A stretch of 64,000 bases of DNA from Clostridia bacterium (GTDB lineage: Bacteria; Bacillota; Clostridia; Lachnospirales; JAOARL01). A model generated the notes under the pieces. That model was given only the letters and a program-made list of their open reading frames with translations. It did no database searches and was not told the DNA's origin. The position numbers and the translations under genes were made by a program. The stretch lies in assembly GCA_025210555.1 (NCBI GenBank), contig JAOARL010000019.1, forward strand, positions 64,338 through 128,337, in the 5' to 3' direction. Positions 20,124 through 38,511 of the stretch are shown here, one piece after another. The first letter of the stretch is position 1; each line of letters opens with the position of its first letter.

Positions 20124-23100
20124 ATGAAAAAAAGTTTAAGTTTATTTATGTGTTTTTTAATAAGCTTTAACGCTAGCTATGCTAGCAGTAATTATGGGGA
20201 GGTGAAATACCCTATGGATGATCTTCTTGAGTTTGTAGAGCTTAATGAAGATAAGATACTTAATGATGCATTAGAAGCAGATATATCAAAAGATTGTGTT
20301 GAAGGATCAGGTTCTCTTGAGATAACTGCGCTTGATGAAGCTGGAAAGGTAGGAGTTGAGTTTGAATTATTAAAAAAGGATTTTAATGTAAATAATACAA
20401 AAGGGATTAATTTACAAATAAAACCTTATAGAAACGCTAGATGGATTGAATTCTATGCGAAATTTAAAGGTGGAGAAAAAAGATTAATACTAATTGATAA
20501 TGATTTAGATGGTAGATGTGAATTAGAGAATGATTTTAAATCAGGTGTATGGAATAAAATTAATTTAGATATGCTTAGAGTAGAAGATTTAGCATCAGAG
20601 GAGAATAACGATGTTGAAAGTTTAATTATTAGAGTAAATGAAGATTCAATATGGAAATTTGATGATATAAAAATGAATGAGGCTGGTAACTACAGTGTTG
20701 ATTTAGATAAATATGAGTCAGAAGATATTGTATTAAATAATGGAGAATTAAAGCTAAAGGAAAAAGATGGCAAATATGAAAAAGGTAATGTTATTACAAC
20801 TAAAGCTAAAAAGAATCAATTCATAAAAGAGTTTGATTTCTCAAATAATCCACAGACAATGAGCATGACTAATGGGATAGTGGTAGGAGAAAGTGAAGTG
20901 GAAATGATATATAGTCCAGGAGTTAGCTATCCACATACAGTTTTTGATAAAGATCCAAGTACAAATATGTCTTATTATCGTCCCTATATGAAAGGATGGA
21001 TAGGAATTAGTTCAAGCGAGCCAATATCTATATCTAGTCTAACATTACTTGAAAAAAATTCGAGGAATGTATTAAGGGGAATATTACAATGTTCTAATGA
21101 TGGAGAAAATTGGGAAAATGTAATGTATTTAAATAATATGTATGAAAATGGAAGAAATAAGACATATAAAGTTTACGATGTAAAAATTGCTAAAAAGTGG
21201 AGGATAATAGCTAACGATTCAGGTGGGAAATATTCGACATGGGAATTAAATAGTTTATCATTTCATAAGAGAAAAAAAGGTGAGTTTTTAAGACAAGGCA
21301 TAGAAATTAATAATGTAAGTAAAATAGAAAAGGCAAAATTAACAATAAGTGGAAGTGAAATCTATAATTTAGATACTTATTATAGGTATTCAGAGGATGA
21401 TGGAGAAACTTGGAGTGAATTTTCAAAAACTGATAAATATAATAATATGACTGAAATTATTGGTAAGAGCATTGCAAAATCAAAATTTGAAGTTAAATTA
21501 CTTACTAAAGATGGAGTTTTTGTATCGCCAGTTATTGAAAAAATTAATATAGAAATTTCAGGAGCAGAGGAAAAATCAACTGATAGTACATATAATAAAA
21601 ATATATCAAGAATATATATTGATTCAAATTATGAAGAAAAAGGAAATAGAATAGATGAATTAAAAACTAGTAAGTTTTTTGAAAATGATTATGCAAAGTA
21701 TAATGATAAATTTAATGTAAGTAGAAGCGGAAGATATATATTCAACTTAAATGAGTCAAATAAGTCTATGTATGTTCAAGATACAACAACTGGAAAAGTA
21801 GAGACTTATAGAAATTATGGGGATGATAGAGCCCAAAAGATATATACTTCATATGATGATAAGGCATACTATGAGGATAGATATAGAAATTTAGTTAATA
21901 AAACAGGATCAAAAACTGATATGGAATCTGTTTTTTATATTTCTAATAGTGGGTCGATAATACAATATGATAGCTATAGTGATGAATTAAAGCGTGCTGG
22001 AGCAAAATTTGTTACAGCAGCTCAAAATGGTACAAGAAGGTTTTTTACAGCATATAATAGTGAGACTAAGAGAACAAAATTATACATGGGAGATAAGATG
22101 ATTCTTGAAACAGTAAGAATATCTCATCTTAAGGCTAACTTAGATGGTAGCATGATAGCATATGAGAATAATAAAAACATATACCTATACAATGTAGATG
22201 AGGGTTACACGAGAAAATTAAATTTAAATAAGATGCAAGAATTTAAACCGATTAAATTTTTACTAAACAATAAAATATTGTTAGAAAATAAAAATACAAA
22301 GTTTAATATATATAATTTAGCAACGGATGAAATTACAGAGTTAGATACTCCGGGAATATCAGGAGCTGAAAAATATCTTTCAGATGATGGTTCGAAATTA
22401 ACCTATAGAATAAAACAAGGTAGTAACTATGGATACAAAGTTAAATATCTGGATGGAACAGATATTGTAAAATATCTTATGATATTTAATAACTCAGGTA
22501 GTTGGTATAGCTATAAAAACAATAGATGGGTAGAAGTAACGGATAAAGTAAAACCATCTAAAGAAGATTTTGATAAGTATGGAATGACAAAAGATGAAAT
22601 AAATAGCATGAGTGAAGATGATTTAGATTTATACAATAAGATTGGTAAAGATGTATATCAAGTAGACTTTGCAATACATATTAATTCACCTGATGTATAT
22701 ACAACGCCAGTAATAAAAGAAATAAAAGTGTTTACTAAAGATAGAGATGGTGAAGCAGAAGTTAAAAGTATGTATGCTAAGAAGAGTTTAACTTATGATG
22801 CATCTAATTGGAGAACTATAAGTAGAATATATCCAGTAGAAATAACTAAGAAAAATGCTGATATCTACTACTTCATTAAGTTAGATGGAGAATATGTATA
22901 TTATGAAAATGGAACTTGGAAAACAGCTGATGATATGAACACATGGCTTAGTGATATGAAAGGTAACTGGAATGATATTAAAAAAGTTGGAATGAGTGCA
23001 TATGATCTAAAGTTTATACCAGCTAGCAAATTAAGTAGTAAATTAGTAGGCAAAGAATTTAAGCTTGAATACGTAATGAATATTGAAGATACGAGTACAA

Positions 23101-23423
23101 ATGGATATAGCAGTAAAATAACTATAGATTTTACCAATAAGATGTTCGGTTCAAATAGTTTAACTTTAAATATTACTTATAGTGATGGAACACTTAAGAA
23201 GTTTACTGAGTTAAGTAACTCAGATATTGAAGATTTTATGACATGGCTTAATAGAAGAGAGTATGGAATAGGAGAAACATTTAAGAAAATTAAGGTTGGG
23301 AATATATATAAATTTATTAATTACAATATGATTCGTGAAATCGAAGTTGAAGAAGCAGTAGCAGCAGAGAGTAGTATGGATTCTGAAGCAATTCCAGTAA
23401 GTGAAAGTGAAGTTGTTCAGTAA
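20124..23423 (+). CDS. Large secreted protein upstream of RHS toxin (discoidin-like and beta-propeller-like)
   Basis: A 1099-residue exported protein. ATG at 20124 follows GGGGAGG and gives a classic signal peptide (MKKSLSLFMCFLISFNASYA). About residues 240-380 look like an F5/8 type C (discoidin) domain: PHTVFDKDPSTNMSYY, then ILQCSNDGENWENVMYL, then KKWRIIANDSGG. About residues 530-780 repeat short beta strands with SxxGRYIFNL and LDGSMIAYENNKNIYLYN, as in a TolB-like propeller. The C-terminal third holds two related segments (WYSYKNNRWVEV and YVYYENGTWKTA, each followed by a GM-x-x-x-(D/E) helix). Its TAATG overlap with the RHS gene implies translational coupling and a joint role, such as carrier, chaperone or surface anchor. 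No LPxTG motif is seen. Confidence 0.7.
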   Translation: MKKSLSLFMCFLISFNASYASSNYGEVKYPMDDLLEFVELNEDKILNDALEADISKDCVEGSGSLEITALDEAGKVGVEFELLKKDFNVNNTKGINLQIKPYRNARWIEFYAKFKGGEKRLILIDNDLDGRCELENDFKSGVWNKINLDMLRVEDLASEENNDVESLIIRVNEDSIWKFDDIKMNEAGNYSVDLDKYESEDIVLNNGELKLKEKDGKYEKGNVITTKAKKNQFIKEFDFSNNPQTMSMTNGIVVGESEVEMIYSPGVSYPHTVFDKDPSTNMSYYRPYMKGWIGISSSEPISISSLTLLEKNSRNVLRGILQCSNDGENWENVMYLNNMYENGRNKTYKVYDVKIAKKWRIIANDSGGKYSTWELNSLSFHKRKKGEFLRQGIEINNVSKIEKAKLTISGSEIYNLDTYYRYSEDDGETWSEFSKTDKYNNMTEIIGKSIAKSKFEVKLLTKDGVFVSPVIEKINIEISGAEEKSTDSTYNKNISRIYIDSNYEEKGNRIDELKTSKFFENDYAKYNDKFNVSRSGRYIFNLNESNKSMYVQDTTTGKVETYRNYGDDRAQKIYTSYDDKAYYEDRYRNLVNKTGSKTDMESVFYISNSGSIIQYDSYSDELKRAGAKFVTAAQNGTRRFFTAYNSETKRTKLYMGDKMILETVRISHLKANLDGSMIAYENNKNIYLYNVDEGYTRKLNLNKMQEFKPIKFLLNNKILLENKNTKFNIYNLATDEITELDTPGISGAEKYLSDDGSKLTYRIKQGSNYGYKVKYLDGTDIVKYLMIFNNSGSWYSYKNNRWVEVTDKVKPSKEDFDKYGMTKDEINSMSEDDLDLYNKIGKDVYQVDFAIHINSPDVYTTPVIKEIKVFTKDRDGEAEVKSMYAKKSLTYDASNWRTISRIYPVEITKKNADIYYFIKLDGEYVYYENGTWKTADDMNTWLSDMKGNWNDIKKVGMSAYDLKFIPASKLSSKLVGKEFKLEYVMNIEDTSTNGYSSKITIDFTNKMFGSNSLTLNITYSDGTLKKFTELSNSDIEDFMTWLNRREYGIGETFKKIKVGNIYKFINYNMIREIEVEEAVAAESSMDSEAIPVSESEVVQ

Positions 23424-26400
23424 TGAAAAAAATATTATTTTCACTCTTTATATATCTAACAGTTTTTAGTAACTGCTTAGCAGCAGAGCCTACAAAACTA
23501 TCAGAACTTATGGAGAGTTTTAAAACTTCGCAGAAAGAATCAATATACAATACAGAACTTAATGCGCCATTTTCAAAAAGTTCAAGTGGTGTTAAAGAAT
23601 CAGTAGATAATGAAACAGGAGCAGTAACAGTAACAAGAGAAATATATAATATTCCAGGAGTAAATGGATTAAATTTATCATTAGCTATTAACTATAATAG
23701 CAATGATGCAAGAGTATATGTAGAGTCAACATCATCAGAAAGAATACCTAATAATTATGGAGATGTTGTTGCATATTATGAAGTGTATGATAAAAAAGGT
23801 AACTGGTTAAATACTCAAGGATTAAGATATTTAGCTGGGCATGAGTACATTGAAAAAGAGCAAGAGTTAGACGGAAAAGATTGGAAGTTTAATGGAAAGT
23901 TATATAAAGACGACAAACTTTTAACTAGTGAGTTGATTCAAAATTATAGTAGAGATAAAAATGAGCTTGAGCAAAACAGAAGTATACTAGGAGAAGGATG
24001 GACATTTGATATACCATATGTAGATGTATCAGATGAGAATACCCCATTTGTAAAATTAGTAGGGGGATCAGTGTACTCATATGATTCTAAATCCGCATGT
24101 GGACTTAAAGATTATGAACTAAATGATATTGTTTTTAGAAAAGAAACTAATGGAGGATTTTTACTTAGTTATTCTGATGGTATGAAGTATTATTTCTCAA
24201 AAGATGGTAATTTAACAATTGTATCAGATAAACATGGTAATAAGTTAAATTATGTATGGGAAGATAAGAAGCTAATAAAAGTATCAGATGATATAGGAAG
24301 AATTATAAGTATATCTTATAGTGGATCAGGAATTAGCTTTAGATATGGTAATCAAGAAATAAAATTAGTTAAGGAAAAAGTATTAGGCACAAATAGTTAT
24401 TACTTAACTAAGATAATAGACCAAAAAGATAGAGTAGTAGACTATACATATAAGACAGAAGTATCAGAGTATGATATAGCAGGTAAAGGACTTGGGCATA
24501 ATAAGTATATTAATCTGATTAATATCAGATATCCTACAGGATTAAATACAGCATATGAGTACTCAAGCAGTTATAAAAGATTAGGAGAAAAAGGTTACAC
24601 TAAATATTATAGAGTATCTAAAAGATATGAATTAATTGACGGTGAAAAATATAACTATATGAGATATTCATATGGTGGACAGCCAGATGGTTATCCTAAT
24701 AATGAAAATGATAAGAGTTATATATATAATACAAACATTAATAAATCTAATGGTATAAGAGAAGAATATATATATAATGCAGAGCATCAAGAGATAGAAA
24801 TTAATGTATATCTAGATGGTAAACGTAAAGAAAAGATAGTAAAAAACTATCATAAAACTCAAAATACTCCTATAAGGGTAGTTACTACTAATTACGATAG
24901 AGGTAAAAGAACATTAGTAAATGAGTATAAGTATGATAGGTACGGGAATACTATTGAGGAAAATACGCCTCTAGATGAAAAAGATATCAAACAAGATAGT
25001 TATAAAACTTTTTATAGATATGATTATACATATAATATGCCAGTTTATAAAAAGTATAAGCAAGATGAAGATACTGTAGTTGAGTTTATAAATATTTTAA
25101 CAGATGATAATAAAAATATAAAAGAAGAAAAAGTGCTTGATAATGGAACTGTTAAAAAACATGTAAGGTATGAATATGATAGTCATGGTAACTGTATAAA
25201 AGAGTATGAGTTAGTTGATGGCAGCGAATGGATAGAAAAAGTTTATACATATACTAATAATTTATATCCATCAACTGCTAGTATTAAAGGTATTAAAGAT
25301 GCAGATGGAAATACCAAAGTATCTAGAGTTGAAACTAAATATGACTTACATACAGGATATGTATTAGAGGAAATTGATGCTAATGGAAATAGCACAAAGT
25401 ATGAATATGATATTCTAGGAAGAAAAGTAAAAGAAATACTTCCAGATAAAGCAACAAGAGTAGTTAAGTATGATGATGAAAATAACATTATTACAACGAC
25501 TGATGCTAATTTTAATAGGCTTATATACTATTTTGACAAGTTAGGTAAGCTTAAGGAGGTAATAGAGCCTAAAAGCACTATAAGGCTTATAAAATACAAA
25601 TATGATAATGATGAAAGATTATTATCAGAAACAGATGCAAATAATAATGTTAAATATTATTCATATGATGACTTTGATAGGATAGAAGAAATTAAATGGG
25701 TTGATAGTAAGAAAAAAATCCTTAAACAAAGAGAAGTAGAGTATGGTATTAATAAGAAAAATATTAACTACGTTGAAATAACAGACTTAGGCGATAATGA
25801 TGATTATATTAAGACTTATTACTTTGACGACTTTGATAGGATAACAAACATAGTAATAGAAAATGGAAATAATGATTTGGAAACTAAATATTTCTATGAC
25901 TTTGTTGGGAATAAGATTGAAGTGGAAGATTTTGATAAAGAAGAAATAAAACTTGAATATGATATATTTGCAAATGTTATATCAAAAACTGATAAAAAAG
26001 GTAATGTAGAGAAGATTAAATATGATAGGCAAGGAAAAGTAGTAGAGAATGAAGATGCTTTAGGTAGAAAAAGATATACTAGTTATGATTATTTAGGAAG
26101 AGAAATAGTTAGTAGAGTTCCTTATAAAGGAAATGAGTATGCCGAAAGTAAAAAGTACTATGATCTAAATGGTAATCTTCTGAAAGTTATAGATGCAGAA
26201 GGGGGAATTTTTAAGAGATATTATAATAACCGTAATGCATTAACTGCAACAGAACTTGTAATAAACAGTAAAAAGTCATATATAAATAAATATATTTATG
26301 ACAAAGAACTTAAGTTAGTGAAGATGCAAAAAGGACTTAATTCTTTTAGAGATAATAATTATACAGAATTAGAGTATGTATATGATAGTTTAGGAAGAGT

Positions 26401-28561
26401 GGTTACATCTAAAGATGAGAGTGGTAATGAAACTAAGTATAAGTATGATAACAATGGTAATTTATTAGAACTTATAGATAGAAATGGAATAAGTAAGTTT
26501 AGTACTTATGATGGTCTTAATAGAGAAGTAGTTAAATATAATACTAAAGACAATGATAAACTTAGAACGCATTATAATTTATTAGGTCAGATAGAAAAGC
26601 TAGAAAGTGATAGTGATCTAATAGAATATACTTATAATAAGCAAGGGAAAGTAAAAACTATTAAGAATAATGGACAAATAAATTCTAATTATAACTATGA
26701 TGAGTTAGGTAGAATAACTAACTACAGTGTTAAAAGAAACAAAGAATCATTAATAGATATAGATTACGATTATGACTTAAATAACAATGTGGTATCTGTT
26801 ATAGATGATAAGACAAAAGTTATATATGAATATGATAAGTTAAATAGACCTGTTAGAGATGTGAATAAAACGACAGGTATAGAAACAACTTATTCATATT
26901 ATAACTTTGGTGGAGTTAAAAGTTTAATTCATAAAAATGGTGAGAAAATAGAAAATGCATTAGCTTTTGAATATGACAGGGTAGGTAATAAGATAAAAGA
27001 AATGGGTAATGGTAATGTGAAAACATATTATTATGATACATTATCTAGACTTCAAGCTATGGAAGATATAAAAGGTAATATTCAAAGTTATAAATATGAT
27101 GACTTTAATAATATTTCATTTATGGTGGATATATCAAATGGGAAGATAGAAGAGAGTAAATATTCATATGATATAAATAATAGACTTATTCTAAAGGAAA
27201 GTGATATTAAAGAGCTTAATACACAGCATAGAATGGAATATGATAGAGAAGGGAATCTTATAAAGAAAGAAGAAGCTTTAAGAGAAGGAAATGAATTTAT
27301 AGGTTCAAAAACATTTGAGTATAACTATGATGGTTATAATAGATTAAGTATAGTTAAAGATCCTATGAAAAGATTTACAGAGTATAGCTATAATAATCTA
27401 GGATTAAGAAGTAATAAAAAGATAGGTAATGAGGAGATTAATTATCTATATAATGGGGATCAAATAGTACTTGAAACGTATAAAGATGGACTTATTAAAG
27501 CTAAAAATATAAGAGGTAGAAACCTAATATATAGACAAGTAAATGAAAAAGAATTATACTATCTACATAATGAAAGAGGCGATGTAATAAAGCTTCTAGA
27601 TGATAAAGGTAGTTTAGTTAAAAACTATGAGTATGATCCATATGGTAATGAAGACATTACTAATAAACATCAAGATAGAAATATAGATAATCCATTTAGA
27701 TATGCAGGAGAGTATTTAGATGAAGAAACTGGTAACTATTATCTTAGAGCTAGATATTACAATCCTGAGATACAAAGATTTATAAGTGAAGATCAGGTAA
27801 AAGGTAATAATACTAATCCTTTAACATATAACTTGTATGGATACTGTGAAGGTAATCCTATAAGATATGTTGATACAAGTGGGAATTATCCAATATATTC
27901 ACTTTATCCTCAAGTGGGGGCTAGAGGTTCAAAAATTCAGGAAATAGTTGATAGAAAAGTAAGAAAAGAAGAGGTTGGCATTGAATATAGTGTTAAGAAA
28001 ACAGCAGTAGGAATGTATTATATATCTAGCGAAACAACATCTATAGGATTAAGTTTTTCGCCAGTAGGAGATATAAAAGATATACAAGAAGCTGTTACAG
28101 GAGTTGATTTGGTAACGGGTGAAAAATTAGAAGCTGATGAAAGAGCCATAACAATTGTTGCAGCTGCACTACCATGGATTAATGCTAAGGCTGCAAGAAT
28201 GGCACTCAAATTAAATAAAGGAATAAAACGTGTAACTAAAATTGGAAAGAAAACAAGAAATTTTGTCAATATAAAGAATAAGGTTTTAGGAAATATAAGA
28301 ACAGGAAGTGCATTAAAGTTAGATGCTCAGCACGCATTTGATGATATAGTTGATAATTATGCTACATATGCTGATAAGTTTGAATTAATTGGTGGAGATG
28401 GAGTGAAGAGGGAATTATATCAAATAGAAGGTTCATTTAACGGTAAAAAAGGAATTTTTGAGTGGGTTGTTGATTCAGACAAGAAGAAAGGTGTAACACA
28501 TAGAAGGTTTATAGATGGAGTAGGAATAACAGGAAAACCAAATGCACGTTCAAAAAAATGA
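23423..28561 (+). CDS. Exported RHS/YD-repeat polymorphic toxin
   Basis: A 1712-residue protein with a Sec signal peptide (MKKILFSLFIYLTVFSNCLA). From about residue 380 to 1400 it is built of YD repeats (for example YEYDILGRKVKE and YDDFDRIEEI) that form the RHS cocoon. The RHS-associated core DPYGNED...NPFRYAGEYLDEETGNYYLRARYY is at about 1405-1470. A pretoxin-TG-like segment (SPVGDIKDIQEAVTGVDLVTG) follows near 1545-1580. The last 80 residues (HAFDDIVDNYATYADKF, LYQIEGSFNGKKGIFEWVVD, THRRFIDGVGITGKPN) resemble nuclease-type C-terminal domains of Firmicute polymorphic toxins; I infer an RNase or DNase. The start overlaps the previous stop as TAATG. The immunity gene follows. Confidence 0.88.
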   Translation: MKKILFSLFIYLTVFSNCLAAEPTKLSELMESFKTSQKESIYNTELNAPFSKSSSGVKESVDNETGAVTVTREIYNIPGVNGLNLSLAINYNSNDARVYVESTSSERIPNNYGDVVAYYEVYDKKGNWLNTQGLRYLAGHEYIEKEQELDGKDWKFNGKLYKDDKLLTSELIQNYSRDKNELEQNRSILGEGWTFDIPYVDVSDENTPFVKLVGGSVYSYDSKSACGLKDYELNDIVFRKETNGGFLLSYSDGMKYYFSKDGNLTIVSDKHGNKLNYVWEDKKLIKVSDDIGRIISISYSGSGISFRYGNQEIKLVKEKVLGTNSYYLTKIIDQKDRVVDYTYKTEVSEYDIAGKGLGHNKYINLINIRYPTGLNTAYEYSSSYKRLGEKGYTKYYRVSKRYELIDGEKYNYMRYSYGGQPDGYPNNENDKSYIYNTNINKSNGIREEYIYNAEHQEIEINVYLDGKRKEKIVKNYHKTQNTPIRVVTTNYDRGKRTLVNEYKYDRYGNTIEENTPLDEKDIKQDSYKTFYRYDYTYNMPVYKKYKQDEDTVVEFINILTDDNKNIKEEKVLDNGTVKKHVRYEYDSHGNCIKEYELVDGSEWIEKVYTYTNNLYPSTASIKGIKDADGNTKVSRVETKYDLHTGYVLEEIDANGNSTKYEYDILGRKVKEILPDKATRVVKYDDENNIITTTDANFNRLIYYFDKLGKLKEVIEPKSTIRLIKYKYDNDERLLSETDANNNVKYYSYDDFDRIEEIKWVDSKKKILKQREVEYGINKKNINYVEITDLGDNDDYIKTYYFDDFDRITNIVIENGNNDLETKYFYDFVGNKIEVEDFDKEEIKLEYDIFANVISKTDKKGNVEKIKYDRQGKVVENEDALGRKRYTSYDYLGREIVSRVPYKGNEYAESKKYYDLNGNLLKVIDAEGGIFKRYYNNRNALTATELVINSKKSYINKYIYDKELKLVKMQKGLNSFRDNNYTELEYVYDSLGRVVTSKDESGNETKYKYDNNGNLLELIDRNGISKFSTYDGLNREVVKYNTKDNDKLRTHYNLLGQIEKLESDSDLIEYTYNKQGKVKTIKNNGQINSNYNYDELGRITNYSVKRNKESLIDIDYDYDLNNNVVSVIDDKTKVIYEYDKLNRPVRDVNKTTGIETTYSYYNFGGVKSLIHKNGEKIENALAFEYDRVGNKIKEMGNGNVKTYYYDTLSRLQAMEDIKGNIQSYKYDDFNNISFMVDISNGKIEESKYSYDINNRLILKESDIKELNTQHRMEYDREGNLIKKEEALREGNEFIGSKTFEYNYDGYNRLSIVKDPMKRFTEYSYNNLGLRSNKKIGNEEINYLYNGDQIVLETYKDGLIKAKNIRGRNLIYRQVNEKELYYLHNERGDVIKLLDDKGSLVKNYEYDPYGNEDITNKHQDRNIDNPFRYAGEYLDEETGNYYLRARYYNPEIQRFISEDQVKGNNTNPLTYNLYGYCEGNPIRYVDTSGNYPIYSLYPQVGARGSKIQEIVDRKVRKEEVGIEYSVKKTAVGMYYISSETTSIGLSFSPVGDIKDIQEAVTGVDLVTGEKLEADERAITIVAAALPWINAKAARMALKLNKGIKRVTKIGKKTRNFVNIKNKVLGNIRTGSALKLDAQHAFDDIVDNYATYADKFELIGGDGVKRELYQIEGSFNGKKGIFEWVVDSDKKKGVTHRRFIDGVGITGKPNARSKK

Positions 28562-28571
28562 GGTGATTTTT

Positions 28572-29102
28572 ATGTATGATATTAGTATATTAGAACTAGT
28601 TGAAGTAGAAAAAGAATGGAATTATATCCTTTGGGGAATAGAAAATAAAATAGTGAATATGGATTCGTTTATCAAATATGTACAAATATATATAGCTTCA
28701 TCTTCTAATTTAGATATTCCAGAATTAATAGAACTTGCGTGGGGAAGACATAGTATAGATGAAACAGTAGAACTATTAAAAATAGCCAGCAAATCAAGAG
28801 TTAGTAGTTTGAGCTTAGATTATAATGGCTATGAAGCAAGAGTTTGGTTATATTCAATACTAAGTTATGAGATGGGAAAATTAAAGTCGATAAGTAAGTT
28901 TTTGGATAGAGTTGAAGAGATATATGCAGATTTTGATTATCCCATTGAAATTGAAGGTTTTGTAAGATATATGCCTCCAGTAGAATCTGAATATATAAAA
29001 AACAATTCAAAAGAAGAGAGCGAAGAAAAAATGTATGAATATTCAAAAAAATTTTTGGAAAATGAAAAAGAAAATTTAAGAAAAATCATAGGTAGATTAT
29101 AA
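28572..29102 (+). CDS. DUF2247-type immunity protein for the RHS toxin
   Basis: A 176-residue cytoplasmic helical protein. ATG at 28572 is chosen because AGGTGA at 28561-28566 precedes it; an earlier in-frame ATG at 28542 overlaps the toxin gene. Family hallmarks are WNYILWGIENKIV near the start, a central ELAWGR helix, and EEIYADFDYPIEIEGFVRYMPP near 110-135, typical of DUF2247. Proteins of that family sit directly after polymorphic toxin genes and are taken as their antidotes. Position 10 bases after the RHS stop supports that role here. Confidence 0.8.
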   Translation: MYDISILELVEVEKEWNYILWGIENKIVNMDSFIKYVQIYIASSSNLDIPELIELAWGRHSIDETVELLKIASKSRVSSLSLDYNGYEARVWLYSILSYEMGKLKSISKFLDRVEEIYADFDYPIEIEGFVRYMPPVESEYIKNNSKEESEEKMYEYSKKFLENEKENLRKIIGRL

Positions 29103-29206: not shown

Positions 29207-29527
29207 ATGAAAGTAAAACGAAGTAGAATGCAATATTTAATTGCATTTTATATAATGGGATATATAATTTCATTGGTAGAGTTTAGTGGTGAAATTCCTG
29301 GAATTTATTATTTTATTCCAGTACGAATTATCGCACTTTGTCTTGCTCTATTGTTAGGAAATGCAGTATATTATACCGCTGAAGAAAAATATGAGCCACT
29401 CATGGCTACAATAAGGATGTTAAAATATATACCAGTTATGTTTATAATACTTGCACTATCAGGATGTGCTAGAATGTATTTATACAATACATATAATATT
29501 AATATTGACTGGATAATTGGAATGTAA
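29207..29527 (+). CDS. Three-helix membrane protein, copy 1
   Basis: A 106-residue membrane protein with three hydrophobic helices and a basic N-terminus (MKVKRSRMQYLIAFYI). It is a close paralogue of the protein at 31536: shared stretches include GEIPGIYYFIPVRI, the EEKYEPLMATIR loop and a final YLYNTYNINIDWI. Function unknown. GGAGGAG precedes the ATG. The two copies bracket a set of four other small membrane proteins downstream of the RHS immunity gene, which suggests duplication or an accessory tail of the toxin locus. Confidence 0.7.
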   Translation: MKVKRSRMQYLIAFYIMGYIISLVEFSGEIPGIYYFIPVRIIALCLALLLGNAVYYTAEEKYEPLMATIRMLKYIPVMFIILALSGCARMYLYNTYNINIDWIIGM

Positions 29528-29533
29528 TATTCA

Positions 29534-29562
29534 TTTACAAATAGTTTAATAAGTATTATAAT
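29534..29562 (+). promoter_or_regulatory. Promoter of the 29668 membrane genes
   Basis: TTTACA at 29534-29539, a 17-base spacer, and TATAAT at 29557-29562. Confidence 0.7.
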
Positions 29563-29583
29563 TTAGTAGGCGGATGATTGAAT

Positions 29584-29625
29584 AAGGCATAAAGAAAGAA
29601 GTTTTCTTTGTGTCTTTTTTTGCCC
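29584..29625 (+). promoter_or_regulatory. Leader hairpin with T-run, related to 20054-20095
   Basis: AAAGAAA at 29591-29597 pairs with TTTCTTT at 29603-29609. The core TTTGTGTCTTTTTTTG (29607-29622) is identical to that in the RHS leader. An outer GGCA/TGCC pairing (29586-29589 with 29621-29624) encloses it. Confidence 0.5.
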
Positions 29626-29667
29626 TAAAACAGATAAAATTAATAATAAAGAGAGGGAATAAACTTT

Positions 29668-30081
29668 ATGAGTACAGGATATAAAATAACATTAATAATA
29701 GTTATAATTGTAGGCTTCATATCTGGCGCTATAGTCAAAACAAATCCAGAATTAATATTAACAAAAGAAAACATAGCAAATGAGGTTATTGAAAGGTTCA
29801 GTGAAAATAGAGAATTAGCAGGTTATGATGATATGGAATTTGTTGGAATTAAAAATATAGATAATGAAATATTAGAATTTGAATACAAAATTGACCTTAA
29901 AAAAGAAGAAATAGATATTGAAGCATTAAAAGGGTATATTATGACAGAAGAAGAATATATAAGTTATTTAAATCTGAGCAGTGAAATGGAAAATGCAAGA
30001 AAGTCAGGATTTGGAATAAGAGATTGTTTTAAAGATATAGATGAAAATATTATATATGAAGTAGGTGCTAATAATGATTAA
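29668..30081 (+). CDS. Bitopic membrane protein, first gene of second membrane pair
   Basis: A 137-residue protein with one N-terminal helix (ITLIIVIIVGFISGAIV) and an acidic external domain. Function unknown. It overlaps the following tetraspan gene by 8 bases, the same arrangement as 16479/16874. AGAGAGGG precedes the ATG after a 100-base leader. Confidence 0.65.
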   Translation: MSTGYKITLIIVIIVGFISGAIVKTNPELILTKENIANEVIERFSENRELAGYDDMEFVGIKNIDNEILEFEYKIDLKKEEIDIEALKGYIMTEEEYISYLNLSSEMENARKSGFGIRDCFKDIDENIIYEVGANND

Positions 30082-30553
30082 GAATATAAAAATGGAAATT
30101 CTTGCTATTATAGCAACAGGTATATTTTTACTAGTAACTAGTTCATTTGTAATGGTTGAAGGAATAAGAAATCTTAATAAAGAAATAATAAGCCCTCAAT
30201 ACTTTACTATTATGGGCGTAGTTGCAGCATTATTTATTTTAACAAGTGTAAGACTTGTATTTTTAAAGAAAGATAGTATTAAAATGTTATTTATATTAGT
30301 TGGATTAGTTATATCATATAATTTAGGCATATTTATTGTTGGTGCATTAGAAGCTCAAAACGAAATATTGTCTGAACATACTACTCAAGCAGCAGGTTTT
30401 ATGGTTCCAATGCTTATAATAAGTAATGTGCTAATAGCTGAAAAAGTTCTTAGTGTATTTGATATAGAACTAGAGGGAAATATTAAAGAAGCTATTTCAT
30501 GGATCATATGGGGAATGCTCGTTATAGTAACAAAGTTGTCTTGGGTTATGTAG
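30074..30553 (+). CDS. Tetraspan membrane protein, second gene of second membrane pair
   Basis: A 159-residue protein with about four to five hydrophobic helices. ATG at 30074 follows AGGTG inside the previous gene. The C-terminal 45 residues (ISNVLIAEKVLSVFDIELEGNIKEAISWI) align with those of the protein at 16874. Function unknown; by context the pair may form a membrane complex. Confidence 0.65.
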   Translation: MIKNIKMEILAIIATGIFLLVTSSFVMVEGIRNLNKEIISPQYFTIMGVVAALFILTSVRLVFLKKDSIKMLFILVGLVISYNLGIFIVGALEAQNEILSEHTTQAAGFMVPMLIISNVLIAEKVLSVFDIELEGNIKEAISWIIWGMLVIVTKLSWVM

Positions 30554-30597
30554 TTATGTATAACTTGGATTAAAATAAAGTAAAAGGGAGAATAGTT

Positions 30598-31095
30598 ATG
30601 GAAATTAGTGAACGTGAGAAAAACATAAGAATAATTATAATGATAATATTATTTTTATTAGTTATGGCTTTAAGAGTTTCTCAAAAATATAATTTATTTT
30701 CTAGCATAGAAGATAATCAAGAATATAGCAACCAAAGTATAGTTACATTGGATACTATATTGAAAACAGAATGGACAGATGTTGAAGGCGATAATAACAT
30801 ATTGTTTTTTGATACAGATAATAAATTGATGTTAGTTGGTAAGAAAGAAAGTGATATTTCAACAACTTATAGTTACGATAAATTTTATTATGATAAAACA
30901 AATAATAAGTTTATTCTTCATTGTTATGAAATAAACGACAATATAATTTCAGAAGAAATTGATCCAGGAGATTTTTCAAGAGAGGTTGATGAAAATTATA
31001 GAATGATATTTAAAAATAATAATCTTATTATTAGTGTGAAAGATGAGGATGGTAATCTAAACGTAAGTAAATGGAAGAAAAACAATGACAAATAA
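30598..31095 (+). CDS. Bitopic membrane protein
   Basis: A 165-residue protein with a short charged N-terminus, one helix (IIIMIILFLLVMALRV) and a beta-rich external domain of about 125 residues (ILFFDTDNKLMLVGKKE, FILHCYEIND). This resembles small lipocalin- or NTF2-like extracytoplasmic domains, but I do not recognise the family. AAAGGGAG precedes the ATG. It is third in the run of membrane genes from 29668. Confidence 0.6.
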   Translation: MEISEREKNIRIIIMIILFLLVMALRVSQKYNLFSSIEDNQEYSNQSIVTLDTILKTEWTDVEGDNNILFFDTDNKLMLVGKKESDISTTYSYDKFYYDKTNNKFILHCYEINDNIISEEIDPGDFSREVDENYRMIFKNNNLIISVKDEDGNLNVSKWKKNNDK

Positions 31096-31124
31096 GAAAT
31101 ATATTTAGAGGAAAGTGAATTAAT

Positions 31125-31484
31125 ATGAAAACTATATTGAAATGGACTATAATCGCTATAGTAATAGCATTAATAAGCATTAAAATTTATATGGTAGGAT
31201 TTAAGGATGGAATGAAGACATTAGGAGAATTAGATCAAGTATATGTAGGTAAAAATATATATTTGGAATTTATGGAAGATGAAGAAGCTGATTATAAGTA
31301 TATAGTTGATTCACTTAACACTTCAAGAAAAAGTGATTTGAGTTTCTGGAGAAATGATCAATTAATAAAGTTAATTGTATATATGAGAGATAATAAATAT
31401 TTAATTAAAGAAGGTAAATATACAATAAATCAAGCATGGGATTTTGAAAGAGTTAAAAAGACACTTGAATTTGTAAGTAAATAG
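31125..31484 (+). CDS. Small bitopic membrane protein
   Basis: A 119-residue protein with an N-terminal helix (LKWTIIAIVIALISIKIYMVG) and a charged external part. Function unknown. AGAGGAAAG precedes the ATG, 29 bases after the previous stop, so it is probably on the same transcript. Confidence 0.58.
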   Translation: MKTILKWTIIAIVIALISIKIYMVGFKDGMKTLGELDQVYVGKNIYLEFMEDEEADYKYIVDSLNTSRKSDLSFWRNDQLIKLIVYMRDNKYLIKEGKYTINQAWDFERVKKTLEFVSK

Positions 31485-31535
31485 CAAAATACTAATAAGT
31501 TTGTTAATTAACTTCAAAAAGAAAAAGGTGAAGAA

Positions 31536-31859
31536 ATGAGAATGAGAGTGAAAAGAAGCAGGGCACAATACTTAATATTTTTTTATATAATAGGATATAT
31601 AATATCATTGTTGAATTTTACAGGTGAGATTCCAGGAATTTATTATTATATTCCAGTACGAATTAGTGCACTTAATATTGCTTTAATAGCAGGGAATGGA
31701 ATATATTACACGATTGAAGAAAAATATGAACCTCTAATGGCTACTATAAGAAGTCTGAAATATGCATTGCTTATGCCTATATTATATTTATTATCAGTAG
31801 GTGCTCAAATATATCTATACAATGCATATAATATTGATATTGAGTGGCTAATATTATAA
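31536..31859 (+). CDS. Three-helix membrane protein, copy 2
   Basis: A 107-residue paralogue of the protein at 29207 (basic RSRAQYLIFFYIIGYIISL, GEIPGIYYYIPVRI, EEKYEPLMATIR, and a YLYNAYNIDIEWL end). ATG at 31536 follows AAAGGTGA; a second ATG two codons later aligns better with copy 1 but is too far from the site. Function unknown. It is the last gene before a terminator. Confidence 0.7.
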   Translation: MRMRVKRSRAQYLIFFYIIGYIISLLNFTGEIPGIYYYIPVRISALNIALIAGNGIYYTIEEKYEPLMATIRSLKYALLMPILYLLSVGAQIYLYNAYNIDIEWLIL

Positions 31860-34250: not shown

Positions 34251-35477
34251 ATGAAAAAGTTAGTATGTATGTTAGCTATTATGTTTATGCTTACAGGATG
34301 TGGTAAAACAGAAGTAGTAGTACAAGAAAAGATAAGAGCTGTTAAGACAGAAACTATAGTTTCACAGCTTAGTGATGTAACTGTAGATTATATAGGAACA
34401 GTAGAATCAGAAGATTTAACTAAATATAGTTTTAAAAGTTCAGGAAAGTTAGCGAGTATTTATGTTAAAAAAGGTGAGGTAGTAGACAAGGGAGATAAGT
34501 TAGTTGAACTTGATAAGTCAGATCTTAAACTTCAATTAGCTACAGCAGAGAACCAAATGAAAGCTGCTAAGTCACAATACACTAAAGCTCTTAATGGAGC
34601 TACAAGTGAAGAAAAAACACAAGTAGAAAAAGATGTTGAAACAGCTAAAAAAGCATTTGAAGTTGCAGAAAAGTCATATGAAGATATGAAAAAACTTCAT
34701 GCTAAAGGAGCAGTATCAGATTCTCAACTTGATTCAGTAGAATTACAATATACTCAAGCTAAGAATAATTACGCAAAAGCTAGAGAAGGATTAAAAAGAA
34801 TTAATGATGGAGCTAGAGATGAAGATATAGATGCAGCTAAGTCAAATTATGAAGCTGCAAAAGCAGGATATGAACTTAGAAAGTCTCTATATGATGATGG
34901 AGCAATTTATGCTAAAGCTAAAGGGGCAGTTGTAGAGATACCTTTTGAAAAGAATGAATTAGTTCCTCAAGGACATCCAGCAGTAATTGTTAGAAGTAAA
35001 ACACAAGTAGTAAATGTTGGAATAGCTCAAAAAGATTTAGATAAAGTGAAACTTGGAACAAAAGCAGACATTATATTAGATGGTGAAGTAGCAAAAGGTG
35101 TTATTACTAACATTGCAGAAGCACCAGATACATATACTAGAACATATAATGCAGAGGTTTTAGTTGAAGACAAGGAATATAGATTAGGATCTATTGTAAA
35201 AGTTTCATTTTATGTTGGAGAAGAAGATGGTATATGGGTACCATCAAGTTCAGTAGCATCAAATGGAATTGATTATGTATATGTAGTAAAAGATGGAAGA
35301 GCAGTTAAAAATGAAATAGTAATTGAAAAAATGTACAATGACAAAGTAAAAGTTTCAGGATTAAATGACGGCGACAAACTAGTAACAGAAGGTGTTAAAA
35401 ATATTTCAGATGGTATTAAAGTAAATATTGTTGGAATAGAGGTAGCAGATGAGAAGCCTAATAAAGAACTTAATTAA
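34251..35477 (+). CDS. RND efflux adaptor lipoprotein (HlyD/AcrA family)
   Basis: A 408-residue membrane-anchored adaptor. ATG at 34251 gives a lipoprotein signal with lipobox LTGC (cysteine near residue 17), placing it on the outer face of the membrane. A lipoyl-type half (LASIYVKKGEVVDKGDKLVEL), a long coiled-coil hairpin (about 100-190, ETAKKAFEVAEKSYEDM) and the second half with the beta-barrel follow in the usual order. It pairs with the RND pump, whose start lies 29 bases inside this gene. No outer-membrane channel gene is nearby, as expected for single-membrane hosts. Confidence 0.9.
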   Translation: MKKLVCMLAIMFMLTGCGKTEVVVQEKIRAVKTETIVSQLSDVTVDYIGTVESEDLTKYSFKSSGKLASIYVKKGEVVDKGDKLVELDKSDLKLQLATAENQMKAAKSQYTKALNGATSEEKTQVEKDVETAKKAFEVAEKSYEDMKKLHAKGAVSDSQLDSVELQYTQAKNNYAKAREGLKRINDGARDEDIDAAKSNYEAAKAGYELRKSLYDDGAIYAKAKGAVVEIPFEKNELVPQGHPAVIVRSKTQVVNVGIAQKDLDKVKLGTKADIILDGEVAKGVITNIAEAPDTYTRTYNAEVLVEDKEYRLGSIVKVSFYVGEEDGIWVPSSSVASNGIDYVYVVKDGRAVKNEIVIEKMYNDKVKVSGLNDGDKLVTEGVKNISDGIKVNIVGIEVADEKPNKELN

Positions 35478-38400
35478 AGAAAGTAGAATTACAATATTTT
35501 TAACACTAGTTATAGCCATATGGGGAATGTATAGTTATAGATACTTACCTAGACAAGAAAATCCAGATGTATCAGCACCGTTTGCGATGATAGTAACTCC
35601 TTATCCAGGAGCATCACCAGTAGATGTTGATAATCTGGTAAGTAAGAAAATAGAAGAAGAATTATTAGAACTTGATAAAGTAGATGAAACAAAAACAATA
35701 TCTAAAGATAGTATATCTATAGTAACAATAATGTTTGAAAACACAGTAGATGTAGATAAATCAATGCAAGATGTTAGAAATGCAGTAGCAGATGTTAAAT
35801 CAGAATTACCAGCTGGAGTATATGCTAGTAATGTTAATACAGATCTACTTGAAACAGCTGGTATTCTTATCAGTTTATCAGGAGAAAATTACAGTTATGA
35901 AAGACTAGCATCTTTTGGAGAACAATTTAAATCAGAACTTCAAGTAGTTAATGGTATATCAAAGTTCAACATTGAAGGAGAACTTGATAAAGAAGTTAAG
36001 ATTGATGTTGATATAAGAAGACTTAACCAGCTAGGACTATCTTTTGAAGACTTAAACAAGGTACTTCAAGCACAAAATATAGAAATTCCGTCAGGAAGTA
36101 TAGATCTTGGAGAAAATAAAATACCAGTTAAGGTTCCAGGTATATATACAAATGTAAAAGATATAGCAAATGTAATTATTGGTATATCACCAGAAACAGG
36201 AGTAGTAACAAGGCTTTCTGACATAGCTGATGTATATATGGATACAGAAGATGGAGCAGAAAAGTTTAAGCAAGATGGAAAAAATGCAGTACTCCTTACA
36301 GGATTCTTTAAAGACAGTGAGAATGTTGTATTAGTAGGAGAAGAAGTAAGAGCTAAGATCGATAAAGTTAAATCAAGATTACCAGAAGATTTAATCGTAA
36401 ATGAAGTTATATACCAACCATCAGATGTTGCTAAATCAACAAATGATTTTATGATTAATCTAATGGAAGGTATACTTCTAGTAGTAATAGTAGTGTTTAT
36501 TGGTATGGGACTTAGAAATGCATTAGCAGTTTCAACAGCAATCCCACTATCAATACTTATGACGTTTATAGCAATGTCATTATTTAAAATTAAGATACAT
36601 CAAATGTCACTTACAGCACTTATTATTTCACTAGGTATACTAGTAGATAATGCGATTGTTATAAGTGATGCAATACAAGTAAAAGTTGATGAAGGTATGG
36701 AAAGAGCAAAGGCAGCGCTTGAAGCTACTATGGAATCAAGTGTTCCTATATTTGTAGCAACGCTTACTACTATAGCAGCATTCTCACCACTTCTTGGATT
36801 ACCAGGACCAGCAGGAGATTTTATAGGAACTATACCAGTAGTTTTAATAATAGCTATAATTGCAGCTTATATAGTAGCAATGCTAGCAATACCAGCATAT
36901 GCATCATTATTATTTAAGAAAAATGAAAACAAAGGTAAAAAAGAAAATAGATTTAGAAAGTTTTTTGAGGATTTACTTAAGAAGGCACTTAGAGTAAGAA
37001 GGCTAACAATAATAGGGGTATTTTTAACATTATACCTGACTATTAGGTTTGTAATGCCACAGTTACCTTCAGAGTTTTTCCCATACGTAGATAAGAATTT
37101 ATTCTATGTAGAAATTAAAAATGAGAAATCAGGAGATATAGATTCAACTGAAGCACTAATAGATGAAGTTGGAGCCGTATTAACAGAGGAACCAGAAATA
37201 ACAGAATATACTAGTGCTATTGGTAACGGTATGCCTAAGTTTTATATAACTGTTCCGCCAGCAACACCAGCAATGGATTATGGTCAAATAGTATGTAAAT
37301 TTGACTTTGAAAAGGGTGATAATAGATTTGACGATAGGTTGAAATTTATTGCATACTTACAAGAAAAAATTGATAAAAACGTAGCATCAGGAGAAGCAAT
37401 TATTAAGCCACTTGCTAATGCTGAACCAGGAGAGAAAATAAAAATCATGGTATCTGGTGAAGATATTGAGCAGATTGGTGAAGTTGCAAAGCATATCAAA
37501 GAAGAGATAGCTAAATTAGATGGAGTTACAAATTTAGGAATTGACCTAAAAGATAAATCACTAGAACTTAAAGTTGATGTAGATACAGATAAAGCAGCAA
37601 ATTTAGGTGTTTCTAAATATGATATCCAAAGACAAATTAATATAGCTTTATATGGATCAGTTCCATCAATATATAGAAGAAATGGTAGCGAATACAATAT
37701 AAAACTTAAGTCGAATATTGATGATTCAAAATTACTTGAAAATATGATGATTAAATCATCAATGACAGGTAAAAAAGTTCCACTTAAGCAATTTGCTACA
37801 ATTACTTATAATAGAAAAGTAGATACAATTAAAAGATACAAAGGTGATAAGACTGTTATGATAACAGCAGATGCATTACCAGGTTATAGTCCAGTAGAAA
37901 TAGAAAATATTGTTGAAAATGAGATTATACCTAACACAGAATTAAACGGATTAACTATTAGTTATGACGGAGAAAGAGAAAGTATTAAAGATAACTTCGG
38001 GGTACTTTTAATACTTGCTGGAGCAGCAGTATTCCTAATATATGTTATACTTACAGTTCAGTTTAATTCATTTATGCAACCAGTTGTTATACTTATGACA
38101 ATACCATTATCATTAATAGGATCAGTAACAGGATTGTTCTTATTTAACAAACCATTATCGCTTACAGCATTCTTAGGAATTATAGCGTTAATAGGATTAG
38201 TTGTTAAAAATGGAATACTTCTAATAGAATATATAAATATGGCAAGAGAAGCTGGAATGAATGTAGAGGATGCTTGTGTAGATGCAGTAGATAAAAGATT
38301 TAATGCAATTATACTTAGTGCGGTAACTACAATACTTGGACTTTTACCACTTGCAATAGCTGGAAGTAGTTTATTCTCACCAATGGCTATTTCACTTATG

Positions 38401-38511
38401 GCAGGTCTTGCAGTATCAACATTCCTGACTATGGTTATAATACCAGTATTTTATGTATCAGCTGATGCTGTTACAGTGAAAGCTGTAAATAAGGTTAAAC
38501 ATAAGAAGTAG
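35449..38511 (+). CDS. RND-family efflux pump (AcrB-like)
   Basis: A 1020-residue proton-driven exporter with the duplicated AcrB layout: N-terminal helix, large extracytoplasmic loop, six helices, then the same again. The proton relay shows LGILVDNAIVISDAI in helix 4 (near residues 396-410), keeping the first Asp of the AcrB DD pair but with Asn in place of the second, and the helix-10 Lys in GLVVKNGILLIEY. PYPGASPVDVDNLVSKKIE near residue 50 is a family signature. The substrate is unknown. The coding region overlaps the adaptor gene and ends at a terminator. Confidence 0.92.
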   Translation: MRSLIKNLIKESRITIFLTLVIAIWGMYSYRYLPRQENPDVSAPFAMIVTPYPGASPVDVDNLVSKKIEEELLELDKVDETKTISKDSISIVTIMFENTVDVDKSMQDVRNAVADVKSELPAGVYASNVNTDLLETAGILISLSGENYSYERLASFGEQFKSELQVVNGISKFNIEGELDKEVKIDVDIRRLNQLGLSFEDLNKVLQAQNIEIPSGSIDLGENKIPVKVPGIYTNVKDIANVIIGISPETGVVTRLSDIADVYMDTEDGAEKFKQDGKNAVLLTGFFKDSENVVLVGEEVRAKIDKVKSRLPEDLIVNEVIYQPSDVAKSTNDFMINLMEGILLVVIVVFIGMGLRNALAVSTAIPLSILMTFIAMSLFKIKIHQMSLTALIISLGILVDNAIVISDAIQVKVDEGMERAKAALEATMESSVPIFVATLTTIAAFSPLLGLPGPAGDFIGTIPVVLIIAIIAAYIVAMLAIPAYASLLFKKNENKGKKENRFRKFFEDLLKKALRVRRLTIIGVFLTLYLTIRFVMPQLPSEFFPYVDKNLFYVEIKNEKSGDIDSTEALIDEVGAVLTEEPEITEYTSAIGNGMPKFYITVPPATPAMDYGQIVCKFDFEKGDNRFDDRLKFIAYLQEKIDKNVASGEAIIKPLANAEPGEKIKIMVSGEDIEQIGEVAKHIKEEIAKLDGVTNLGIDLKDKSLELKVDVDTDKAANLGVSKYDIQRQINIALYGSVPSIYRRNGSEYNIKLKSNIDDSKLLENMMIKSSMTGKKVPLKQFATITYNRKVDTIKRYKGDKTVMITADALPGYSPVEIENIVENEIIPNTELNGLTISYDGERESIKDNFGVLLILAGAAVFLIYVILTVQFNSFMQPVVILMTIPLSLIGSVTGLFLFNKPLSLTAFLGIIALIGLVVKNGILLIEYINMAREAGMNVEDACVDAVDKRFNAIILSAVTTILGLLPLAIAGSSLFSPMAISLMAGLAVSTFLTMVIIPVFYVSADAVTVKAVNKVKHKK

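What the first reader, a model, noticed from the sequence alone, without database searches (positions are those of the whole stretch)
20124..29102. Sec-exported RHS toxin with translationally coupled secreted partner and DUF2247 immunity
Unlike many RHS proteins delivered by type VI machines, this one has its own Sec signal. A 1099-residue exported discoidin/propeller protein overlaps its start as TAATG, so the two are made together. The partner has no name and may be the surface receptor, carrier or protease guard of the RHS shell. The nuclease-like C-terminal domain and DUF2247 protein complete a contact-dependent style system.
Basis: partly seen in the sequence, partly recalled or inferred. 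Interest (0 to 1): 0.6.

Follow-up and report, generated by a model that had tools for sequence, protein, structure and literature searches.

The report
Two-part secreted RHS toxin operon
A Clostridia bacterium carries an operon for a large secreted toxin cage with its matching antidote and, made together with it, a second secreted multi-domain protein; comparison shows that such a second protein goes with most secreted cage toxins of this bacterial class, which points to a two-part weapon whose second half appears unstudied.

Summary
Window 20124-23423 encodes a 1099-aa Sec-exported protein whose stop overlaps (TAATG) the start of a 1712-aa Sec-exported RHS protein; a DUF2247 gene follows, probably starting at 28572. 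The toxin-immunity part is known: the RHS tail carries the Ntox19 motif set, and its relatives in CdiA-like and other carriers are followed by DUF2247 (=Imm38). The coupled partner is the new part. Its full-length family is rare: in 84,980 species one other member was found, also directly upstream of a Sec-RHS gene. Two surveys chosen by RHS similarity alone show that this layout is general in Clostridia: 18 of 23 and 20 of 22 Sec-type RHS genes have a co-oriented exported protein directly upstream, often overlapping; RHS proteins without a Sec signal have none. Most large partners end in a cohesin-like domain that is almost RHS-specific (32 of 34 genome-wide matches). The window's partner lacks that domain and ends in another extracellular module. 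Best reading: a split Sec-Rhs (WapA-like) system whose wall/receptor-binding half is a separate protein. Function is inferred; the partner's structure prediction failed. New variant of a known kind.

The parts
20124..23423 (+). Partner: 1099-aa Sec-exported multidomain protein (signal peptide 20124-20183)
   Evidence: ORF and signal peptide read directly; relative L062 4593-7664, E 9e-39, 31% identity over residues 783-1075
20349..20681 (+). Partner N-terminal beta-rich domain (about residues 76-186), conserved in L062 relative
   Evidence: tblastn residues 92-205 E 1.3e-9
20937..21239 (+). Weak F5/8 type C (discoidin-like) domain, residues 272-372; mostly absent from the L062 relative
   Evidence: Pfam E 0.0054, under cut-off; gap in alignment A1
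21591..22463 (+). Region of WD40/TolB-like repeats, probable beta-propeller (about residues 490-780)
   Evidence: Repeats read by eye; only weak Pfam propeller match E 0.055; structure prediction failed
22470..23093 (+). Two W-containing repeats, residues 783-990, best conserved part of the family
   Evidence: Alignment A3 with L062, 32% identity
23145..23363 (+). C-terminal module 'DFxxWxxxRxxGxG', shared with secreted FN3, kelch and discoidin-type proteins of the order
   Evidence: Alignments A2/A5; genome search E down to 5e-17 in other genomes
23421..23425 (+). TAATG stop-start overlap of partner and RHS genes
   Evidence: Sequence
23423..28561 (+). RHS protein, 1712 aa, Sec signal peptide 23423-23482
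   Evidence: Pfam RHS_repeat E 9e-38, NCBIfam YD_repeat_2x E 2e-40; PDB Rhs cages E 2e-36
27632..27883 (+). Rhs_assc_core domain (end of the cage), residues 1404-1487
   Evidence: TIGR03696 E 9e-21
28040..28228 (+). Pre-toxin domain PT-TG, residues 1540-1602
   Evidence: PF14449 E 5e-12
28268..28558 (+). Ntox19-type C-terminal toxin domain (residues 1616-1712): motifs KxDxxH, DGxxR, E, HRRF
   Evidence: tblastn 38-51% identity to tails of other polymorphic toxins; alignment; motif list in PMC3482391
28572..29102 (+). DUF2247 (Imm38) immunity gene, probable start 28572
   Evidence: PF10004 E 3e-21; Shine-Dalgarno at 28560-28566

Best explanation
The locus is a two-component, Sec-exported Rhs polymorphic toxin operon. 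Shown: both large proteins have signal peptides, their genes overlap as TAATG, and the RHS tail is an Ntox19-type toxin with its Imm38 (DUF2247) immunity gene. Inferred: both chains leave through Sec and fold outside the membrane; the RHS part forms a closed cage around the tail; the partner holds the cage at the producer's surface and/or binds the target surface, doing in trans what the N-terminal wall/receptor-binding part of WapA does in cis. On contact the tail, a predicted BECR-fold RNase, enters a neighbour and cuts RNA; kin are protected by the DUF2247 protein. Translational coupling would keep the two proteins in fixed ratio, as expected for parts of one complex.
For: Signal peptides and overlap. 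Toxin motif set and cassette: six relatives (L069, L070, L072-L075), in CdiA-like, LXG-like and other carriers, are each followed by a DUF2247-like gene; Ntox19-Imm38 pairing and BECR prediction in PMC3482391. The only other partner-family member is also directly upstream (21 bp) of a Sec-RHS gene. Survey 1: 18 of 23 Sec-RHS have a co-oriented exported protein ending -20 to +38 bp from the RHS start (L078 interrupted), against 0 of 8 non-Sec RHS (Fisher p 1.6e-4) and 5 of 88 other ORFs (p 4e-12). Survey 2: 20 of 22. Most large partners end in a cohesin-like domain; 32 of 34 genome-wide matches in 28 genomes lie 1-4 genes upstream of Sec-RHS. Modules shuffle between the chains: CBM96/DNRLRE is fused to RHS in L043 but sits in the separate partner in L049; subtilisin is on the RHS in L039/L044 and on the partner in L141; single-chain peptidase-cohesin-GalOx-Rhs proteins are reported (PMC6780208).
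Against: No experiment. The window's partner and its one relative lack the cohesin-like domain, so they are analogues of the other partners in place and size, not proven homologues. The partner model failed (pLDDT 30), so fold and contact with the RHS are untested. Its C-terminal module occurs in many secreted proteins with no RHS nearby, so it may be a plain surface protein. 7 of 45 surveyed Sec-RHS genes have no partner directly upstream, so it is not always needed. The signal-peptide call in the surveys is a home-made rule.
Confidence: 0.6

Rival explanations
1. The partner is an export or processing helper of the RHS chain (extracellular chaperone, or scaffold for a protease) and not part of the delivered or displayed complex; it helps the large RHS chain fold or cross the wall, comparable in role to the SecF-like and SrtB helpers of S. 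suis WapA.
For: Helpers encoded directly upstream are known for Sec-type WapA (PMC12704120). Many related operons have a second, small N-anchored helical protein directly before the RHS. Subtilisin domains occur in related operons.
Against: The window's partner has no protease, sortase or SecF domain; it is a large secreted chain with binding-type modules; partner modules appear fused to RHS in cis elsewhere.
Confidence: 0.25
2. The partner is an independent surface adhesin or sugar-binding protein merely co-transcribed with the toxin (same ecological use, no physical link).
For: Its C-terminal module is common in secreted FN3, kelch and galactose-binding proteins without RHS neighbours; discoidin-like and propeller modules are generic.
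Against: Stop-start overlap; strong association across two surveys and many families; near RHS-specificity of the cohesin-like domain in the analogous partners; fused versions.
Confidence: 0.13
3. The operon is not an interbacterial weapon; the RHS and its partner act in adhesion or matrix building, and the tail and DUF2247 gene are a swapped-in cassette without current use.
For: Related RHS-cohesin proteins were described as unconventional cellulosome scaffoldins (PMC6780208, PMC3413522); an RHS cage without a toxin would still be a large surface protein.
Against: Intact tail with the Ntox19 residues (D, H, DxxxR, E, HxxF) and an intact immunity gene as in other polymorphic toxins; both frames open.
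Confidence: 0.08

Closest known systems
Rhs/WapA Sec-exported polymorphic toxins of Gram-positives (B. subtilis, S. suis)
   Same: Sec signal, YD/RHS cage, pre-toxin and variable C-terminal toxin with downstream immunity gene; helper genes upstream in S. suis (PMC12704120)
   Different: The window RHS has no DNRLRE/CBM96, DUF6531 or LysM-like N-terminal part found by Pfam; upstream there is no SecF-like or SrtB gene but a 1099-aa exported partner overlapping the RHS start
Ntox19-Imm38 (DUF2247) toxin-immunity cassette (Zhang et al. 2012)
   Same: All listed Ntox19 motif elements in order; DUF2247 gene directly downstream; same pairing in relatives
   Different: Nothing notable apart from the Sec-RHS carrier with a coupled partner
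TcB-TcC pairs of Tc toxins (named only)
   Same: A beta-propeller-bearing protein paired with an Rhs cage holding a C-terminal toxin
   Different: No SpvB domain, no TcA; here the whole RHS cage is in one chain and the partner's repeats are not of the integrin-like type by any search
Unconventional scaffoldins ScaO/ScaP of Clostridium alkalicellulosi and Acetivibrio cellulolyticus
   Same: Cohesin, peptidase, GalOx (kelch-type) and Rhs modules brought together, as in the related clostridial operons
   Different: One chain and no toxin described; the window partner has no cohesin-like domain
CdiA/CdiB/CdiI contact-dependent inhibition
   Same: The same toxin tail and DUF2247 immunity occur on a CdiA-like carrier (Duffyella, L072)
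   Different: No two-partner (FhaC/CdiB) secretion, no filamentous haemagglutinin repeats

Membership tests
Sec-dependent RHS polymorphic toxin | Signal peptide followed by RHS/YD repeats, Rhs core domain and variable C-terminal toxin | tested here: met
   Sequence
Sec-dependent RHS polymorphic toxin | Downstream cognate immunity gene | tested here: met
   DUF2247 E 3e-21; same pairing in L069, L070, L072-L075
Rhs/WapA sensu S. suis and B. subtilis | N-terminal wall-binding part (DNRLRE/CBM96, LysM or similar) in the RHS chain | tested here: not met
   No such Pfam match in the window RHS, while L043 and L051 show CBM96+DUF6531
Rhs/WapA sensu S. suis | Upstream SecF-like and SrtB genes | tested here: not met
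   Upstream are the partner, a 280-aa unknown and an alpha-amylase
Ntox19 | Conserved D, H, DxxxR, E, HxxF in a small alpha+beta domain | tested here: met
   Alignment with five relatives; motif list in PMC3482391
Ntox19 | BECR fold and RNase activity | tested here: inconclusive
   Single-sequence model pLDDT 53 with two helices and four strands, no significant fold match; activity not testable here
Imm38/DUF2247 | Match to the family model next to the cognate toxin | tested here: met
   76 bits against cut-off 25
Clostridial cohesin-terminated RHS partner (pattern described here) | Exported large protein directly upstream of Sec-RHS | tested here: met
Clostridial cohesin-terminated RHS partner (pattern described here) | C-terminal cohesin-like domain | tested here: not met
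   hhalign of A4 against A3 probability 0.5%; no A4 match in G000 or G495
CDI (CdiA/CdiB) | CdiB transporter and haemagglutinin repeats | tested here: not met
   No such domains in the operon proteins
T7SS-delivered Rhs | LXG/WXG leader and WXG100 partners | tested here: not met
   Sec signal instead; no WXG100 match in the genome
Tc toxin (TcB-TcC) | SpvB and integrin-like propeller in the partner | tested here: not met
   No match in Pfam or the PDB

The most novel reading that the evidence does not exclude
Sec-exported Rhs toxins of Clostridia are as a rule multi-protein systems: the Rhs cage is made together with a separate secreted propeller/FN3/cohesin-type carrier (and often a small membrane-anchored protein) that anchors it, aims it or gates it. 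The window holds a streamlined version with a partner family of its own.
Probability: 0.45. Interest if true: 0.75.

Novelty: new variant of a known kind. Interest (0 to 1): 0.6.

Why it matters
How large Sec-exported Rhs toxins of Gram-positive bacteria are held at the surface, cross the wall and reach a target is open (stated so for WapA in PMC12704120). The standard survey of polymorphic toxins lists no signature neighbour gene for the Sec-dependent type (PMC3482391, Table 1). A conserved, often translationally coupled exported partner, found here in most Clostridia Sec-RHS operons, would supply a missing component that can be deleted, purified and modelled, and would give a role to cohesin-like domains outside cellulosomes.

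Tried and rejected
AlphaFold2 of the partner from a two-row alignment failed (pLDDT 30), so no fold search was made with it. The toxin tail alone gave pLDDT 53 and no significant PDB fold match. Plasmid, viral and single-sequence genome-contig scans found no partner relative; the alignment-based genome scan found one locus, the same contig as L062. Toxin search in viral contigs and phages: none. Rfam near the operon: only a tRNA. The idea that the window partner ends in a hidden cohesin domain was tested and rejected. A dockerin in the RHS proteins as receptor of the cohesin-like domain was looked for and not found in five RHS proteins. Papers on RHS plus cohesin gave only single-chain scaffoldins.

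Full report
WHAT IS THERE. Three genes run head to tail at 20124-29102. The first encodes a 1099-aa protein with a signal peptide and a strong ribosome-binding site. Its stop overlaps the start of the second gene as TAATG, and the second gene has no clear ribosome-binding site of its own, so translational coupling is likely. The second gene encodes a 1712-aa RHS protein with its own signal peptide, RHS repeats, the Rhs core domain, a PT-TG pre-toxin domain and a C-terminal tail of about 100 residues. The third is a DUF2247 gene; its better start is 28572, 10 bases after the RHS stop. The genome (1.56 Mb, 38 contigs, 99.6% complete) has no other RHS or DUF2247 gene and no WXG100 protein.

THE TOXIN-IMMUNITY CASSETTE IS KNOWN. 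The tail matches other toxin tails at 38-51% identity: a CdiA-like protein of Duffyella, and tails in Photobacterium, Deinococcus, Niallia, Nocardia and Neisseria, plus genomes of the same order. In all six relatives whose surroundings were read (L069, L070, L072-L075) a DUF2247-like gene follows. The alignment shows KxDxxH, GxDGxxR, E and HxRF, which is the set given for Ntox19 (D, H, DxxxR, E, HxxF; predicted BECR RNase), whose listed partner is Imm38 = DUF2247 (PMC3482391). The fold itself could not be confirmed here.

THE PARTNER FAMILY. The 1099-aa protein has a beta-rich N-terminal domain, a weak F5/8 type C match, WD40/TolB-like repeats (propeller by eye only), two W-containing repeats and a C-terminal module with the motif DFxxWxxxRxxGxG. 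By BLAST it has almost no relatives: none full-length in 116 relatives, plasmids or viral contigs. In the class one genome (G495) has a clear relative of 1023 aa, and a scan of 84,980 species found only that same locus (MAG RGIG8748, water deer colon). There the gene ends 21 bp before a Sec-exported RHS gene. The relative lacks most of the discoidin-like region, so the propeller and C-terminal parts are the conserved core. The C-terminal module alone is common at the end of secreted FN3, kelch and galactose-binding proteins of the order without RHS neighbours.

THE LAYOUT IS GENERAL. To ask whether Sec-type RHS genes have exported partners in general, RHS loci were collected by similarity to the window RHS N-terminal 426 residues only, blind to the partner. 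Survey 1 (order, 392 genomes): of 23 Sec-type RHS genes with upstream sequence, 18 have a co-oriented exported protein of 325-1649 aa directly upstream at -20 to +38 bp (one, L078, looks interrupted; two RHS signal peptides and one partner signal peptide were judged by eye after the script missed them). None of 8 RHS genes without a Sec signal has one, and 5 of 88 other ORFs do (Fisher p 1.6e-4 and 4e-12). Related genomes are not independent, so these p-values are indicative. Survey 2 (class, 391 genomes): 20 of 22 Sec-type RHS genes have a directly upstream exported or N-anchored protein at -46 to +57 bp: 5 times a large protein, 15 times a small helical protein of about 290-380 aa, with the large one often 2-4 genes further up. 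RHS proteins with T7-type leaders have none.

THE COHESIN-LIKE DOMAIN. Fourteen partners of survey 1 end in a shared domain (alignment A4). Its profile matches solved cellulosomal cohesins (best E 2.5e-4), and Pfam Cohesin matches 7 of 14 members. In survey 2 that profile hits 17 of 289 ORFs, and all 17 lie 1-4 genes upstream of an RHS gene, the domain at the very C-terminus in nearly all. Genome-wide in 28 genomes it has 34 matches, of which 32 lie upstream of Sec-RHS genes; one more (L172) precedes a subtilisin-DUF4474 protein and the weakest (G416) has no link. In front of the domain the partners vary: RCC1 propeller with FN3, FN3 only, subtilisin with RCC1; partners without a confident cohesin call include kelch types. 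The window's partner and its relative do not have this domain. They share position, export, size and propeller-type build with the others, not proven descent.

MECHANISM. Modules move between the two chains: CBM96/DNRLRE sits in the RHS chain of partnerless L043 (the WapA layout) but in the separate partner in L049; subtilisin sits on the RHS in L039 and L044 and on the partner in L141; cellulosome work describes single chains with peptidase, cohesin, GalOx and Rhs (PMC6780208, PMC3413522). Domains that are fused in some species and split in neighbouring genes in others usually belong to one complex. I therefore read the partner as the wall/receptor-binding half of a split WapA-like toxin, made in fixed ratio with the cage. 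Shown: gene structure, export signals, cassette identity, association. Inferred: complex formation, surface display, delivery, RNase action.

RELATION TO KNOWN SYSTEMS. Sec-type RHS toxins are known (WapA; PMC3482391; PMC12704120). S. suis WapA has SecF-like and sortase helpers upstream and a wall-binding N-terminal part; both are absent here. The 2012 survey lists no signature neighbour for the Sec-dependent type. I found no paper describing the exported partner as a general feature, but only open-access papers were searchable. Verdict: new variant of a known kind.

Noticed in passing
L135-L137, L139, L147, L153-L156, L158-L160, L163, L164, L167; L052:8405-9382: A family or group of small (about 290-380 aa) N-terminally anchored helical proteins sits directly before many Sec-RHS genes, often overlapping by 1-46 bp; no Pfam match for the one tested. 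Possibly a second conserved component.
   Followed up: partly
L039, L044, L041 (RHS N-termini); L141:8601-13151: Subtilisin (S8) domains are fused to the RHS chain in some operons and to the upstream RCC1-cohesin partner in another.
   Followed up: partly
L172:3565-10275: Cohesin-terminated partner followed by a subtilisin-PPC-PG_binding-DUF4474 protein without detected RHS repeats: perhaps a related toxin type using the same partner.
   Followed up: partly
G183, G162, G169, G146: A C-terminal module (DFxxWYxxRxxGxGxxxY) ends many short secreted FN3/galactose-binding proteins, up to 12 matches per genome; possibly an unnamed surface-association module.
   Followed up: partly
window 29207-31859: Run of small genes after the immunity gene; the first three (29207-30553) look like membrane or exported proteins and have no confident Pfam match.
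   Followed up: no
window 35449-38511: RND-type efflux permease (NCBIfam RND_permease_2, E 4e-162, under the curated cut-off).
   Followed up: no
G000: The genome has 23 SLH-domain matches in about ten proteins, so an SLH-type surface is likely; the domain search of the RHS and its partner gave no SLH match.
   Followed up: no
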